Origin: an uncultured Bacteroidota bacterium
GTDB lineage: Bacteria > Bacteroidota > Bacteroidia > Chitinophagales > LD1
Reading direction: 5' to 3'
Length of the DNA stretch: 42,919 nucleotides
NCBI GenBank assembly: GCA_903861145.1
Contig: CAIOTH010000004.1
Location: 1-42,919 of the forward strand
Shown: in pieces, positions 1-5,749 of the stretch
Layout: each line of letters starts with the position of its first letter
Position numbering within the stretch: the stretch's first letter is position 1
Translations under genes and position numbers: made by a program
The notes under the pieces: model-generated
The model's input: the letters and a program-made list of their open reading frames with translations, nothing else
What the model was told of the DNA's origin: nothing
The model's database searches: none

Positions 1-5
1 TTGAC

Positions 6-998
6 GTGAAGGAGTCTTTAAGAATACTAAATGAATTGAGAACGTTGACCTTGGAGAACGAAAGCAATTATTTCAGTAACATTGATGAATTCAACTCTCG
101 CATTAAGGAATTTAAGGAAAGAGGATACAAAATGATTTTAGCCAATAATTTAGAGCCAGTAGAGCTATCGGAACCTATAGAAATATCGGATAAATATGCC
201 TCTGAAATAAAAAGAATTCAGTTAGAAAAAATAGAAGATATTAAAAACGGGCGAATGGAAAACGCAGCGAGATTGAGAAGCCAAGAAAAATTCCTGGTGG
301 TCGAGGTATTAAATTCCTACTTCGGCAATCCTTCAATTCATTACAAACTTCACAATGCTGAAAAAAAGGAAGTTCTTTGTCGCCCTGCCTTCTATAAATT
401 TCAATTTCCCAATCTTTATTTCGACTTGGGTAAAAATCCATTTAAAAAAGTCGTAAACGATATTCAAAAGGTGCTACTGGATACTCCTTTATACTCAGTG
501 GGAGAGTGCCAGAGTAAATTATCGACAAAAAGTAAAGGGCTATATTGGATTTGGACTAATCATTCCGATGAAGATTTGAAAGCGTGTATAACAGATGAAG
601 AAAAACGAAAACACGTTCCAATTTCCAAGCTTGTTATGGAACGTGAAGGTCTTAACAATATATGTAAAATTGAGAAAGATGATTTTAGAATTGTATATAA
701 TGGAATGGGTGGATTTAAAAAGGTTCCAGCAAAATTTAGTCTGAGAAAGAGAATAAGTCAAGAGTTAGATTGTCCTGATAAAGGCACAGGAACACTTAAT
801 ATTTTAAACCGATTTGGGAGCAGTAAAGAAGAGGAGAAAAAAAATTGGCGCATTTCATTTTTTGAGTTTGGCAATATGGATAACTTAAAAATTTTGAGCC
901 AATTGGGAAGGTGCGGAGATTACTATAATCAGTATGCATCAACGCTTGAGAAATTATGGCGCATTGAATACGGGATGCCAATCCTAATAAGACATTAA
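6..998 (+). CDS. GIY-YIG-like nuclease with UVR motif (possibly 5'-partial)
   Basis: The frame opens at GTG 6 and remains open to the window edge, so the true start may lie outside. Residues 63-97 resemble a UVR motif of the UvrB/UvrC/ClpC type (RMENAARLRSQEK, compare 'fE.AA.lRD.e'). The C-terminal half resembles a GIY-YIG nuclease: GLYWIW (178-183), then YNGMGG (231-236), a basic LRKRI helix (246-250), and a late Glu (315) ten residues before a Pro, in the usual order. UvrC joins these two modules in the opposite order, so this would be a different architecture. It is the first of several nucleic-acid-related genes here. The UVR motif is fairly clear; the nuclease assignment is inference from spaced motifs and needs a profile search. 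Confidence 0.5.
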   Translation: MKESLRILNELRTLTLENESNYFSNIDEFNSRIKEFKERGYKMILANNLEPVELSEPIEISDKYASEIKRIQLEKIEDIKNGRMENAARLRSQEKFLVVEVLNSYFGNPSIHYKLHNAEKKEVLCRPAFYKFQFPNLYFDLGKNPFKKVVNDIQKVLLDTPLYSVGECQSKLSTKSKGLYWIWTNHSDEDLKACITDEEKRKHVPISKLVMEREGLNNICKIEKDDFRIVYNGMGGFKKVPAKFSLRKRISQELDCPDKGTGTLNILNRFGSSKEEEKKNWRISFFEFGNMDNLKILSQLGRCGDYYNQYASTLEKLWRIEYGMPILIRH

Positions 999-1010
999 TC
1001 TTTTATTGAT

Positions 1011-2147
1011 ATGAAATTCGGATTCCGAAAACCATCCTTAAGCAAAATGAAAAGAACCTTTTTCCCAGCATTCATTATTGCAATAGCAACGTTATCTCCA
1101 CAGTTCTCATTTGCCTGGGGGCATAAGGGTCATTCACTGGTTGCTGAAGTTGCCTTCAGCCAACTAAACGAATCCACCAAAACAGAAGTAATGAAGTTTC
1201 TTGATGGAAAGTCAATTGAAGATGCTGCCAACTGGATGGACGAAATCAGAAGTGACCACACTTATGATTATCTTAAACCCCTTCACTACATTAACATTGA
1301 TAAAGGCGAACAGTTTAACCCCTCTTCCACTGAAAATATCTATTCTGAAATCAATCGCATCCTGACCGACTTCAAAAGCATGGACAAGTTAAGAGATGAA
1401 CAAATCCAGTTCGACTTGCTTGAGTTGATGCACCTGTTCGGGGATATACATCAACCACTCCATTGCGGGTATGGTTCAGATAAAGGTGGCAACACCGTTC
1501 AGGTTTCCTTCCTTGGCACTGGTTCCAACATCCATAAAGTATGGGATTCTGAAATGATAGATTATAAAAAAGTAACCTTGCAGGATGTTCTCCAGAGTAA
1601 TCATTATACCTCAGAACAAATTGCCAGCATAAAGAAAGCCCCTGTTGAAGCATGGATAAAAGAAAGCAGGAGTTATCTCGATAATTGTTATGCGTTCAAG
1701 AGCAATAAGATTGATGATGCTTATGTGAATGCGAATATCGGCATCGTGGAAAGCCAGATTGATAAAGCTGGAATCAGACTTGCCGCATTGCTGGAGGAAT
1801 ATTTCGGCAAAATCACAAGGACTCCATCATTTGCTCATGTTCAGGTAGATGTTAAGGAAATCAATGTCAATGATGCAAGTTCAAACATCGGGCAAACCGT
1901 AAAGGTATGTTCAATGGTATATGGAACCAAAGAATTGAAAAGCGGAATGACCTTTATTAATCTGGGTTCGGCATATCCGAATTCACCATTAACGCTGGTT
2001 ATTTATGGTGATGATATGAGCAACTTCAAACAGAATCCATCAAGTTATTATGATGGAAAAAGAGTTTGTGTAAAGGGAAAGGTATCTGATTACAAAGGCA
2101 AAGCACAGATTGTGATTCACGGGGAAGACGAAATACAGGTTAAGTAA
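1011..2147 (+). CDS. Secreted S1/P1 nuclease with C-terminal OB-like domain
   Basis: Zinc-dependent single-strand nuclease/3'-nucleotidase of the S1/P1 family, exported. The family's zinc-ligand pattern is visible: WGHKGH (36-41), HYIN (92-95), HLFGDIHQPLH (141-151) and NIHKVWD (173-179). In this family the signal-cleaved N-terminal Trp itself binds zinc; here W36 follows a convincing signal peptide (MKRTFFPA... to ...QFSFA, residues 13-35). That makes the internal ATG at 1047 a plausible alternative start. The first 12 residues (MKFGFRKPSLSK) precede the signal peptide and nearly duplicate the start of the next gene. Residues about 283-378 form an extra beta-rich domain (GQTVKV..., GKRVCVKGKVSDYKGKAQI) resembling a nucleic-acid-binding OB fold. 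Family assignment is strong; the OB-like call is inferred. Confidence 0.88.
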   Translation: MKFGFRKPSLSKMKRTFFPAFIIAIATLSPQFSFAWGHKGHSLVAEVAFSQLNESTKTEVMKFLDGKSIEDAANWMDEIRSDHTYDYLKPLHYINIDKGEQFNPSSTENIYSEINRILTDFKSMDKLRDEQIQFDLLELMHLFGDIHQPLHCGYGSDKGGNTVQVSFLGTGSNIHKVWDSEMIDYKKVTLQDVLQSNHYTSEQIASIKKAPVEAWIKESRSYLDNCYAFKSNKIDDAYVNANIGIVESQIDKAGIRLAALLEEYFGKITRTPSFAHVQVDVKEINVNDASSNIGQTVKVCSMVYGTKELKSGMTFINLGSAYPNSPLTLVIYGDDMSNFKQNPSSYYDGKRVCVKGKVSDYKGKAQIVIHGEDEIQVK

Positions 2148-2215
2148 ATCCCGAACTGCCTGAAACCAACAATGAAGAGTTGGTAATGATTAATAACAAA
2201 ACGAAAATACTTAAC

Positions 2216-2419
2216 ATGAAGTTGGGATTTCGAAAACCCTCTTTATCCAGAATGATTGCCGCCAGGACATCTCCAAAGCGCATCATAAAGAACGCCTTGG
2301 GCTTAAGAGCACCCAGGGGATGGGGCTGGTTAACGAATCCGAAACGAACGGTTTATAACAGAGTTTACGATAGGACGAGTTTAAGTTTGGTCGGAATGCT
2401 TAAGAAGTTGTTTAAGTAG
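2216..2419 (+). CDS. Small basic protein with MKLGFRKPSLS N-terminus
   Basis: 67 aa, very basic. The frame opens earlier (TTG 2180, ATG 2186), but ATG 2216 is chosen because MKLGFRKPSLSRM aligns with MKFGFRKPSLSKM at 1011, with DNA similarity over about 40 bases. It continues with IAARTSPKRII, RAPRGWGWLTNPKR and YNRVYDRTSLSL. I have an unverified recollection of similar short Arg/Lys-rich segments (a GFRKPSL opening followed by a GWGWxxNPK block) in hypothetical proteins of Bacteroidota and Firmicutes, alone or as N-termini of larger proteins. There is no signal peptide or membrane segment. Function is unknown; nucleic-acid binding or a targeting segment would suit the composition. Confidence 0.6.
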   Translation: MKLGFRKPSLSRMIAARTSPKRIIKNALGLRAPRGWGWLTNPKRTVYNRVYDRTSLSLVGMLKKLFK

Positions 2420-2460
2420 ATTTATAAATTGTAAACGAGCTTTGCATTCACAAACTCAGT

Positions 2461-3186
2461 TTATTTTTGTTGACTCTTTTTAATTGCAGTCATGATTTCT
2501 TTATAATGGGGCTCTTCTGGCTTTCCTTGAGGGTGCTGTGCTACAATAATTAAGGTCTCATTCAAATACCCTGCAAATTCAACATAGGTCATTGAGCTCT
2601 GCTTTATTTTATTTTTTAAGCTCCCCAAAAAATCTTTTGCCCATGACCATCCTGTTAGAAATATCACAACCTTGGGTTTGAACAAATCGAACTCCGCTAA
2701 TAATAACTCTTTACATATTTCAAGTTGGACATCACATAACTTATCTGATGGGTTTGCCTTTCCCGTCTTGAGCTTGGCAGCCTTATACAAATTAGACCAA
2801 ACAATTTTGTTCATTACCGTTTCTCTATTCTCAATTATTTCTTGTGCTAACATTCGGGAAAGTCGGAAAAAGGCTGATTTTCTTGTATTATAAATTCCAT
2901 TTTTTGTTGCTCCCCATTGTTTAATAACCCATTCCAACCCATCATCATCAGAAAGTGCTTCTTTAATTTGTGCAATTACTCTTTTTCTATTTGCCTTATT
3001 ATTTTTATCAATTTTATTACCCCACCCATTTGTTGCTCTCCCGATAATCATCAATTCATGCTGGTATTCTTTTCCCTTAGCAGGAGTAAAAAGACTTAAC
3101 TTTTCTTCTGCATAAGAATCGCGTTCAGAATATATTATTTCAATTAAATTTTCATACTTAGCTAACAAAGTGTCATGTGATTTCAT
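2461..3186 (-). CDS. Uracil-DNA-glycosylase-like superfamily protein
   Basis: 241 aa, cytoplasmic. LMIIGRATNGWG (45-56) resembles the glycine-rich first motif of the UDG superfamily. KIVWSNLYKA (127-136), the hydrophobic strand KVVIFLTGW (172-180) and the late IIVAQHPQG (213-221) sit where that fold has its second strand, central strand and His-containing final motif. It is not a canonical Ung: the GQDPYH motif is absent. The best guess is one of the uncharacterised UDG-like families, which may have lost or changed glycosylase activity. It converges on the 67-aa gene (41-bp gap) and lies downstream of the 3272-4365 pair on the same strand. Fold inference only. Confidence 0.5.
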   Translation of the reverse strand: MKSHDTLLAKYENLIEIIYSERDSYAEEKLSLFTPAKGKEYQHELMIIGRATNGWGNKIDKNNKANRKRVIAQIKEALSDDDGLEWVIKQWGATKNGIYNTRKSAFFRLSRMLAQEIIENRETVMNKIVWSNLYKAAKLKTGKANPSDKLCDVQLEICKELLLAEFDLFKPKVVIFLTGWSWAKDFLGSLKNKIKQSSMTYVEFAGYLNETLIIVAQHPQGKPEEPHYKEIMTAIKKSQQK

Positions 3187-3271
3187 ATTGATAACGGATT
3201 AATAGAGATACGTGCTTAAGATTTTCGAAGTTAACTTATGCCCCCATATAATATAGCTAAGTAAGTGTCCA

Positions 3272-3694
3272 TTACGCCTTCAGTCCCAGGCTTCTTAGCC
3301 CCTGAATTGTATGGTCATACTCGCCCTCAACAATATATAAACTCATTCCATCCTCTCCATAAGCAAACGTTGCTTTGATATTTTCTCGCTTTAATGCTTC
3401 AGCGAATTGAACAAGGTGGTTGGTGCGTTTTTCCAAATCCCTGAGTCGAGCCATATCTTCATATCGCTTTGCTGCCTGGAGCGTCTCTTTTTGTGCCTTT
3501 ATAAGAGGAACCTGGACATTAGCTTTCAGAAATATTTCTGGCTTATGCAGAGTAACCGATATAATCTTCTCCTCTTTAAAGAATTCGAAAAGCTGCTCCT
3601 TCTCAGCTACCGATAAAATGAAATCTGGTTGAAGAAGCTTATTGAGGATTGTAACACATTCATCAATTTGTTGACCGTTCATAAATTTTTCCAT
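3272..3694 (-). CDS. UVR-motif hypothetical protein
   Basis: 140 aa. Residues 63-92 match the UVR helix-hairpin well (AAKRYEDMARLRDLEKR; the EDMARLRDLE core is at 79-88). This motif mediates protein-protein contacts in UvrB, UvrC and ClpC/McsA proteins. N-terminal helices (2-45) precede it, and a short alpha/beta tail follows (ATFAYGEDGMSLYIVEGEYD). The start codon overlaps the 3' end of the upstream 228-aa gene by 16 bp, so the two are probably co-translated. No catalytic residues are recognised; an adaptor or regulatory role is inferred. It is the second UVR-motif protein within 4 kb. Confidence 0.6.
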   Translation of the reverse strand: MEKFMNGQQIDECVTILNKLLQPDFILSVAEKEQLFEFFKEEKIISVTLHKPEIFLKANVQVPLIKAQKETLQAAKRYEDMARLRDLEKRTNHLVQFAEALKRENIKATFAYGEDGMSLYIVEGEYDHTIQGLRSLGLKA

Positions 3695-4365
3695 TTTACT
3701 AATTTGATTTGACCGTAAACACTCAAAGCCAGGAGTGAATCTTTGGGAAAGATATAAAATTGATACTCTGCGAAGTCAAATGAATATGGAGGCAAATTAT
3801 AGAGTTGATACTCTTTAAGATGAAAAGATAATGGCTTCCTTTTCAACTGAAGCTCTTCATAATCCTTCATATTATTTTGATGTAGGGGTTCAAAGAACAT
3901 TGTAACTATGTAGGTGGAGCTTGAAAAATAGTCTTGTTCGCATTTGTAATATTTTGTGCCCCTTTTCATTGCATCACGTATATTCCGCTCCCGTTCTATC
4001 GGCTCATTCCTTGCAAATGGGCTAAACATCCCACCGCAGCTTGCCTCAATTATAAATTCACAATCGAATTCTGACTTGCGAAAGAATACATACATATCAG
4101 CCAAACCCTCAAGTTGATTATCCGACTTGTGTATCTTGTATTGTTGCATTGCCCAAACATCAATGGGCTTCTCGTTGCGTATCAAAGCAGATTTGACCAA
4201 GCCAAGAAGAGCAACAGCATTATTGGTAATTATTTCATCTGCTTTTTTATCACGGCAAACATTTCTTCGGATGTAAGCATCAACTTCCTCTTGCAACTTA
4301 TCTTTCAAAGTTTCTTGCAGAAATCGTTTTATGTCGTTGCATAGATTAATGTGAGTTAATTCCAT
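3679..4365 (-). CDS. Unknown protein, possibly PD-(D/E)XK-like
   Basis: 228 aa from the ATG at 4365; an upstream TTG at 4401 is less likely because a TACTTTTG element (TAnnTTTG consensus) lies between the two. Not recognised by family. A helical N-terminus (LQETLKDKLQEEVDAYIRR) leads to a core, GLADMYVFF then CEFIIEAS, whose Asp...Glu-x spacing recalls a PD-(D/E)XK nuclease, but the motif Lys is Ser. A basic helix (RDAMKRGTKYYKCEQ) and hydrophobic strands (TYIVTMFFEP, YQFYIFPKDSLLALSVYG) follow. It overlaps the UVR-motif gene by 16 bp, so they likely act together. A nuclease-like fold, perhaps inactive, is speculation. Confidence 0.5.
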   Translation of the reverse strand: MELTHINLCNDIKRFLQETLKDKLQEEVDAYIRRNVCRDKKADEIITNNAVALLGLVKSALIRNEKPIDVWAMQQYKIHKSDNQLEGLADMYVFFRKSEFDCEFIIEASCGGMFSPFARNEPIERERNIRDAMKRGTKYYKCEQDYFSSSTYIVTMFFEPLHQNNMKDYEELQLKRKPLSFHLKEYQLYNLPPYSFDFAEYQFYIFPKDSLLALSVYGQIKLVKWKNL

Positions 4366-4370
4366 AACTT

Positions 4371-4378
4371 TTTGGAGC
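4371..4378 (-). promoter_or_regulatory. Candidate -7 element for the 228-aa gene
   Basis: On the minus strand TACTTTTG matches the Bacteroidota -7 consensus TAnnTTTG and ends a few bases before ATG 4365. No good TTG -33 element lies 19-21 bp upstream, so support is partial. If used, the mRNA would have a very short leader and translation from TTG 4401 would be excluded. Confidence 0.3.
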
Positions 4379-4507
4379 AAAAGTAATGGCTCACTACGCA
4401 ATGTATCTGCGTAGCGAAATATTTTTTTGGGGACGATAACAGAAGAAATTGTTCAGGGAAATAATACCAGGATTGCCTGGAAATAAGGGCTATTTTTAAG
4501 GTTGCTT

Positions 4508-4690
4508 TCAGTTTAAACTATTCCAGTTTTCCTTCATCACATTCCTTTTTCTAACGTGGGCGGATATGATTTCGTTTAAAACAAGCAGCGTAATTTCATT
4601 TAAGTAACCAGTTAGATTGTTCATGTAGACGTAAACCGTTGAGGAGTTCACTGGTTTAATTTTCGCTACTCTTTTTTTATGTGCTTTCAT
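4508..4690 (-). CDS. 60-aa small protein, paralogue 1
   Basis: Aligns without gaps over its full length to the 60-aa protein at 4889-5071, with 23 identical residues. Shared blocks: MKxHK, KIKPxNSST (10-18), Tyr22, GYxxE (28-32), IS (42-43), RNV (49-51) and terminal LN. The stop regions also match in DNA (TTCAGTTTAA), so this is a gene duplication, and both frames having been kept argues that they encode protein. Small, basic, soluble, no signal peptide. About 200 bp separates it from paralogue 2. Function unknown. Confidence 0.55.
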   Translation of the reverse strand: MKAHKKRVAKIKPVNSSTVYVYMNNLTGYLNEITLLVLNEIISAHVRKRNVMKENWNSLN

Positions 4691-4888
4691 AAAACACCTT
4701 TATGTTAAGTATACGTGAATCGCTAACTTATGTTGTGAAGGTCGTAGAAGAAAACAACTCAACAATTGGCTTTTGCACAGGGGCTAATCTGATTGTATTC
4801 AACATTGAGCAGGTTGATGAATACTGAAGTAGTTGTTTGGATGGAAATACAGAGTGAGAGCAACTCACCTGGGGTTAATTATAAAGCT
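4691..4888. other. Spacer between the two 60-aa paralogues
   Basis: 198 bp without a convincing ORF; it would carry the promoter of the 4508-4690 gene. A GAATACTGAAGTAGTTG string here (about 4819) resembles GAATGCTGAAGAAGTAGTTG at about 5423 upstream of the lysine-rich gene, so the duplication may have included upstream sequence. No terminator or clear promoter was seen. Confidence 0.3.
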
Positions 4889-5071
4889 TCAGTTTAAGAG
4901 ACTCATTCTTCTTTCATCAACATTCCTATAATTGCCATCAGAAGATATGTTCCCCTCAATCAAAATTTTGGCAACCTCTCTAAAGTAACCTCCTGAATCC
5001 TTGAGGTAAATAAATAGGGTTGAAGAATTTGCTGGTTTTATTTTCCCAGATATTAATTTATGGATTTTCAT
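4889..5071 (-). CDS. 60-aa small protein, paralogue 2
   Basis: Paralogue of 4508-4690 (23/60 identical, no gaps). Its ATG overlaps the TGA of the lysine-rich gene upstream (ATGA, 5068-5071), the arrangement typical of translational coupling, which strongly supports it as a real gene. Conserved blocks KIKPxNSST and GYxxE suggest a short beta/alpha fold. No membrane segment. It probably acts with the histone-like protein; what it does is unknown. Confidence 0.62.
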   Translation of the reverse strand: MKIHKLISGKIKPANSSTLFIYLKDSGGYFREVAKILIEGNISSDGNYRNVDERRMSLLN

Positions 5072-5325
5072 TGTTGCTTGGGAGATTTACTGCCAACGTT
5101 TTTATACTCCTCGATAAAGGTGTTGATTTCACCAAAATAAATTTCAACCTGTTCTTTATCATTGTTGGGGTCTGTAACGAACTTGGTCATCCTTTTGTGC
5201 ACCTTCTTAATCGCTTTTTCTGTTGCTGGTGTTACAGTAGCCTTTTTTGGCTGAGCACTTTTCTTCTTCGCTGGTGCGGCTTTCTTTTTCGTAACCGTCT
5301 TGGTTGGAGCCTTCTTCGTTGCCAT
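5068..5325 (-). CDS. Lysine/alanine-rich histone-like protein
   Basis: 85 aa. The N-terminal third is a Lys/Ala/Pro/Thr tract (TKKAPTKTVTKKKAAPAKKK...) like histone H1 tails and bacterial Hc1/AlgP-like proteins. The C-terminal part is a short acidic-amphipathic helical region (ATEKAIKKVHKRMTKFV, then EQVEIYFGEINTFIEEYKN). Non-specific DNA or RNA binding is the likely property. First gene of a coupled pair with the 60-aa paralogue (ATGA overlap). Such low-complexity proteins occur on phages and islands and also as chromosomal proteins, so composition alone does not define the function. Confidence 0.65.
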   Translation of the reverse strand: MATKKAPTKTVTKKKAAPAKKKSAQPKKATVTPATEKAIKKVHKRMTKFVTDPNNDKEQVEIYFGEINTFIEEYKNVGSKSPKQQ

Positions 5326-5539
5326 TGTATTGTTTTAAGGGATTCAGATAAAGGTAACCTTAATTACTGAACAAGCTTCTCATCAAAATAGTGGTTGATG
5401 GCTCTTAATTTATTGTTTGTTTGGAATGCTGAAGAAGTAGTTGCAATAACTCATTTCAAAAATGGCATTAAATACATGCCCATTTTTAGCCAACTACTTT
5501 TTGAAACTACCTATATTTAAGCTGTCGTTTATTATGAAA

Positions 5540-5563
5540 GTGATACCAAAAGTGATACCAAAG
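5540..5563 (+). repeat. Tandem 12-bp repeat next to the tRNA scar
   Basis: Two adjacent copies of GTGATACCAAA(A/G). They lie about 47 bp before the T-arm of the tRNA fragment. Paired direct repeats beside an attachment core are how integrase arm-type sites usually look. Their form (GT..AC followed by AAAAGT..AC) resembles the tandem pairs at 5842-5858 and 33385-33401. Confidence 0.55.
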
Positions 5564-5606
5564 AGAAAAACCCCTCAAGAAATTGAAGGCTTTGAGAGAT
5601 GGAAAG

Positions 5607-5635
5607 AGTCCCAGGTTCGAATCCTGGTACCCCGA
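5607..5635 (+). tRNA. Orphan tRNA 3' end (attachment-site scar)
   Basis: CCAGG-TTCGAAT-CCTGG forms a perfect T-arm (5611-5627), followed by TACCCCG (5628-5634), the 3' strand of an acceptor stem, and discriminator A5635. No CGGGGTA strand, D-arm or anticodon arm lies at the proper distance upstream, so only the 3' part is present. In translation this gives the typical artefact VRILVP. The CGGGGTA/TACCCCG acceptor would suit a tRNA-Pro-like donor, but the isotype cannot be fixed from this piece. The intact gene should lie at the far left end of the island. Confidence 0.7.
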
Positions 5636-5749
5636 CACAGTAATAGCATGGGGTAAAAGGTTTACATTTTTCAGAAAAGTTGTCTAAAAAACAGCATAAA
5701 TCAGGAAAACCAGCATTTCAATATAATGATTTTCAATACAATACAAAAG

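What the first reader, a model, noticed from the sequence alone, without database searches (positions are those of the whole stretch)
4508..5325. Duplicated 60-aa protein family coupled to a lysine-rich histone-like protein
Two gapless paralogues (23/60 identical; KIKPxNSST and GYxxE blocks) sit in tandem. One is joined by an ATGA overlap to a Lys/Ala-rich DNA-binding-type protein. Retention of both frames after divergence implies selected function. The unit could be a nucleoid or phage-related module; I recognise no described family.
Basis: partly seen in the sequence, partly recalled or inferred. Interest (0 to 1): 0.6.

Follow-up and report, generated by a model that had tools for sequence, protein, structure and literature searches.

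The report
Orphan small-gene pair on mobile island
Two related 60-residue genes of no known family really are there and look like working genes, but they appear to be local passengers at the end of a piece of mobile DNA inserted at a tRNA gene, so they are mostly ordinary.

Summary
Two minus-strand ORFs (4508-4690, 4889-5071) encode 60-aa proteins that are 23/60 identical without gaps, far beyond shuffles. The second overlaps by ATGA an 85-aa protein (5068-5325) with a Lys/Ala-rich basic N-terminal half and an acidic C-terminal half. Codon-position identities, dN/dS about 0.3-0.4 (dS near saturation) and codon usage support real genes under purifying selection.

No convincing homologue was found for the pair or for the 85-aa protein.

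The new point is location. Window 5608-5636 is a detached 3' end of tRNA-Pro(TGG). The intact tRNA lies on another contig of the same genome, followed after 194 bp by a tyrosine recombinase. The 14-mer CAAAAGTGATACCA flanks both sites. Two same-genus genomes share this terminus; the one readable upstream carries different genes. The genes are most likely lineage-restricted cargo at the right end of an integrative element. A nucleoid or phage module is not supported. Function is inferred only: small basic nucleic-acid-binding or regulatory proteins of the element.

The parts
5068..5325 (-). 85-aa protein (P0003): Lys/Ala-rich basic N-terminal half, acidic C-terminal half; first gene inward from the right attachment site
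4889..5071 (-). 60-aa paralogue (P0002), ATGA-overlapped with the 85-aa gene
4508..4690 (-). 60-aa paralogue (P0001), 198 bp further on
5608..5636 (+). detached 3' end of tRNA-Pro(TGG), 29 bp identical to the intact gene at G000:C152:16051-16126; right attachment site
5539..5560 (+). two AGTGATACCA repeats next to the attachment site (arm-type-like); the 14-mer at 5547-5560 recurs beside the intact tRNA-Pro
3679..4365 (-). neighbour X, 228 aa, no family; conserved with Y in one same-genus genome; not part of the 60-aa unit
3272..3694 (-). neighbour Y, 140 aa, overlaps X; conserved with X in one same-genus genome

Best explanation
The two 60-aa genes and the 85-aa gene are real, lineage-restricted cargo genes at the right end of an integrative element that entered the 3' end of tRNA-Pro(TGG) through a tyrosine recombinase. 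The 60-aa pair arose by duplication inside the element or an ancestor and both copies kept their frames under purifying selection. Inferred, not shown: all three are small basic proteins that bind nucleic acid or a partner and serve the element as regulators, accessory factors or counter-host factors. In the 85-aa protein the basic tail would bind DNA or RNA while the acidic helix-prone C-terminal half would contact a partner, possibly the coupled 60-aa protein.
For: Paralogy and coding. No relatives in 148 related, 395 same-order and 394 same-phylum genomes beyond the own one, nor in the collections. Detached tRNA-Pro end at 5608-5636; intact tRNA-Pro on contig C152 with Arm-DNA-bind_5 / Phage_int_SAM_5 / Phage_integrase recombinase 194 bp downstream; the same 14-mer on the element side of both sites; 134 bp of right terminus 95% and 85% identical in G006 and G016, where the gene upstream in G006 is different. 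G+C of 0.34-0.40 up to about 6000 against 0.405-0.49 beyond.
Against: C152 and C4 are separate contigs of a draft genome, so the two ends are not shown to belong to one element, and the middle is unseen. tRNA-Pro is a recurrent site (a second, detached copy in 5 of 18 same-genus genomes), so the ends could come from different insertions. Nothing tests binding or function. dS is near saturation. The structure model is weak (mean pLDDT 65.9).
Confidence: 0.6

Rival explanations
1. Element control genes: the 85-aa and 60-aa proteins act at the joined attachment site, as excision or DNA-bending factors. In the circular form they would lie beside the integrase, transcribed away from it.
For: Position next to the right attachment site and its repeats; small basic proteins.
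Against: G006 shares 95% of the terminus but has an unrelated 220-aa frame upstream; no excisionase-type family matched. In G016 only about 220 bp of the contig lie upstream, too little to judge.
Confidence: 0.12
2. A toxin-antitoxin or other addiction pair: 85-aa first gene, 60-aa second gene, overlapping by 4 bp, with a second 60-aa copy.
For: Gene order, sizes and overlap; mobile-element setting.
Against: No TA family matched in Pfam or NCBIfam, and P0001/P0002 match nothing in PADLOC; the basic N-terminal half of the 85-aa protein and both basic 60-aa proteins offer little charge complementarity except through the acidic C-terminal half.
Confidence: 0.12
3. A nucleoid (histone-like) module.
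For: 20 Lys and 9 Ala in 85 residues.
Against: No histone-like or NAP family matched; no relative of the 85-aa protein in 39 close or 297 same-order genomes.
Confidence: 0.08
4. Not genes: decaying or chance ORFs.
For: Short, no homologues found.
Against: Frame-specific similarity, third-position divergence, dN/dS below 1, best codon score in the claimed frame for all three.
Confidence: 0.05

Closest known systems
Cargo ORFans at the ends of tRNA-integrated elements (genomic islands / ICEs of Bacteroidota)
   Same: tRNA 3'-end attachment site duplicated, tyrosine recombinase with Arm-DNA-bind_5 and Phage_int_SAM_5 domains, lower G+C, genes without homologues near the end
   Different: A retained divergent paralogue pair with one copy translationally overlapped to a lysine-rich protein; no named element was matched
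Lysine-rich histone-like proteins (HU / histone H1-like; recalled names)
   Same: Lys/Ala-rich tail in the 85-aa protein
   Different: No family match; the C-terminal half is acidic; the 60-aa proteins are not lysine/alanine-rich tails
Acb4 anti-CBASS protein of phage SPO1 (PDB 9e4w)
   Same: Best Foldseek PDB rank of the weak model, E 0.41, TM 0.48 over 37 columns
   Different: Not significant, 5% identity, weak model; not taken as a relationship

Membership tests
tRNA-integrated mobile element (tyrosine-recombinase type) | duplicated tRNA 3' end at the far boundary | tested here: met
   29 bp identical, window 5608-5636 versus C152 tRNA-Pro(TGG)
tRNA-integrated mobile element (tyrosine-recombinase type) | integrase gene adjacent to the intact tRNA | tested here: met
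   401-aa frame, open at the contig end, 194 bp downstream; three integrase Pfam domains above cut-off
tRNA-integrated mobile element (tyrosine-recombinase type) | both ends joined by one continuous element | not testable with these tools
   the ends are on two contigs of a draft genome
Integrative and conjugative element (ICE) | conjugation genes inside the element | not tested
   the middle of the element was not identified
Histone-like / nucleoid-associated proteins | sequence match to a described family | tested here: not met
   no match above a curated cut-off; PDB only L11 at E 0.6
Toxin-antitoxin modules | match of either partner to a toxin or antitoxin family | tested here: not met
   PADLOC no match for the 60-aa pair, one sub-threshold-like match of the 85-aa protein to Cas5_IIId at E 0.0043, 13.7 bits, discounted because of its lysine-rich composition
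Phage genes | match to PHROGs, phage records or viral contigs | tested here: not met
   best PHROG match of P0001 at E 0.086

The most novel reading that the evidence does not exclude
An undescribed two-part regulatory or counter-defence module of integrative elements: a tail-bearing basic adaptor (85 aa) translated together with a small beta-rich 60-aa effector, with a second, diverged effector copy of different specificity beside it.
Probability: 0.12. Interest if true: 0.5.

Novelty: new member of a known kind. Interest (0 to 1): 0.22.

Why it matters
It adds one more family of orphan cargo genes, this time with internal evidence (a diverged paralogue) that the orphans are functional, and it maps an integration hotspot at tRNA-Pro(TGG) in this genus. 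If the two-part module reading were true it would be a small new tool of mobile elements.

Tried and rejected
Homologue candidates rejected: of the 6 non-own genomes in the phylum search at E <= 0.01, I looked at the reading frames of 5 (L037, L038, L040, L041, L042; L039 not looked at). The best, L037 (E 1.6e-4), lies out of frame inside a 323-aa ORF. L042 is in frame inside a 159-aa ORF over 26 positions (E 0.005); chance is likely but not excluded. The 17 non-own matches of the order search (best E 0.0034) were not looked at one by one. The related-loci scans need near-exact short peptides, so they miss distant relatives.

Structure: the 60-aa model (two-row alignment) has mean pLDDT 65.9, three strands, residues 43-60 below 50; Foldseek gave no match at E <= 0.001 in PDB or BFVD. 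The model of neighbour X was too poor to search (mean pLDDT 42.3).

41-aa plus-strand ORF between the paralogues (4702-4827): the best codon score of its six frames (0.204), but its two weak matches elsewhere fall inside or antisense to the end of a long conserved ORF that I recognise as RNA polymerase beta (from recall), so they are taken as chance.

UDG-like gene as part of a conserved trio with X and Y: the 235-aa gene before X in G007 is not similar to it (E 0.052); dropped. A promoter scan found fewer promoter-like sites than the shuffles (7 against 9.0). A literature search for the theme gave 6 listings (listing and abstract starts only) and 0; neither answers the question.

Full report
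Observation. All stated coordinates are right. P0001 (4508-4690, minus) and P0002 (4889-5071, minus) are both 60 aa and align without gaps at 23/60 identities, E 8e-14. Shuffling one of them 100,000 times never gave more than 16 identities or a score above 47 against 111 observed. P0003 (5068-5325, minus, 85 aa) precedes P0002 and overlaps it by ATGA. Similarity runs from the start codon to the stop.

Are they genes? Of six frames only the claimed one is free of stops in both copies, and it has the best protein score. Identities by codon position are 36, 39 and 27 of 60; shuffled codon order gives about 19, 17 and 16. dN/dS is 0.37 (NG86) and 0.29 (ML); two other methods failed, and dS of 1.4-2.2 is near saturation. 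A codon score trained on 15 window genes outside 1-5640 is positive in the claimed frame for P0001, P0002 and P0003 (0.036, 0.097, 0.145) and negative in their other five frames. A chance ORF pair is therefore unlikely.

Relatives. Pfam, NCBIfam and PHROGs give nothing above a cut-off. In the own genome only the two copies match beyond noise. Single-sequence search: own only, 1 of 149 genomes. Profile search: 18 of 396 same-order genomes at E <= 0.05, of which only the own one is below 0.003; 7 of 395 same-phylum genomes at E <= 0.01, the best other one (1.6e-4) being out of frame in another gene. Two scans of 84,980 species genomes confirmed none, and two of viral contigs none. Phage and plasmid records gave only E 7 or worse. 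No PDB sequence matched. P0003: own only in 1 of 40 and 1 of 298 genomes, none in viral contigs or plasmids. The pair is an orphan family as far as searched.

Surroundings. Window 5608-5636 is the detached 3' end of tRNA-Pro(TGG). The only other match in the own genome is the intact gene at C152:16051-16126. 194 bp after it begins a tyrosine recombinase frame that is open at the end of contig C152, with Phage_integrase (1.8e-20), Phage_int_SAM_5 (3.6e-14) and Arm-DNA-bind_5 (1.3e-9) domains. The 14-mer CAAAAGTGATACCA occurs at 5547-5560 and at C152:16269-16282. In the 90 loci then held, 15 had it, all of them copies of these two sites or of the G006 and G016 sites; the whole genome was not scanned for it. 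The window has two exact AGTGATACCA copies, both here. G+C rises from 0.34-0.40 before about 6000 to 0.405-0.49 after. From 6105 on lie chromosome-like genes, starting with a SprB-repeat / CHU_C protein. So 1 to about 5636 is most likely the right end of an integrative element. That both contigs carry the ends of one element is inferred.

Relatives of the element. Of 18 same-genus genomes, 11 have the tRNA-Pro end at up to 2 mismatches and 5 (own, G006, G012, G014, G016) have a second copy; ARAGORN finds no complete tRNA at the five second copies. G017 has a 42%-identical integrase just after its tRNA-Pro. Searching 248 same-order genomes with window 5500-5640, 32 match, but only own, G006 (95%, 134 bp) and G016 (85%, 134 bp) match on the element side; the other rows cover the tRNA part only. 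In G006 the frame upstream is an unrelated 220-aa one; in G016 the contig starts too near to tell. P0001-P0003 are thus not a fixed part of this terminus, which points to cargo.

Neighbours. X (3679-4365) and Y (3272-3694) overlap by 16 bp and are conserved together in one other genome, G007 (50% and 49%), without a 60-aa gene among the ORFs of at least 50 aa listed there. Terminator-like stems on the minus strand lie at 4418-4390 and 4480-4467, between P0001 and X, so X and Y may be a separate unit.

Mechanism. Shown: real paralogues, coupling of one to P0003, attachment-site neighbourhood, orphan status as searched. Inferred: cargo role; nucleic-acid binding from charge alone (pI 9.7-10.2); an adaptor role of P0003 from its basic/acidic halves. 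The AlphaFold model of the 60-aa protein suggests three strands with low confidence, and its fold matches are not significant.

Verdict. The nucleoid and phage readings are not supported; orphan cargo of a tRNA-Pro integrative element is the best account. This is a common kind of finding, hence the modest interest score.

Noticed in passing
window 3272-4365 and L035:12023-13081 (G007): Two-gene unit X-Y without family match, conserved at about 50% in one same-genus genome. X of G007 has a D...E-A-K pattern that resembles a PD-(D/E)xK nuclease motif (recalled), where the window copy reads E-A-S.
   Followed up: partly
window 1011-2147 and 2216-2419: An S1/P1 nuclease gene (Pfam E 4e-51) and a small protein matching phrog_3374 (E 1.7e-16) begin with nearly the same 13 residues (11 of 13 identical).
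   Followed up: no
G023:C8:12757-12802 and 54915-54949: Two tRNA-Pro-end copies about 42 kb apart on one contig of a same-family genome: possibly a complete element in one piece.
   Followed up: no
window 4702-4827, plus strand: 41-aa ORF between the paralogues with the best codon score of its six frames; no believable relative.
   Followed up: yes
window 2461-3186, minus strand: Uracil-DNA-glycosylase-superfamily-like gene, below Pfam's cut-off (20.5 against 24.3 bits).
   Followed up: partly
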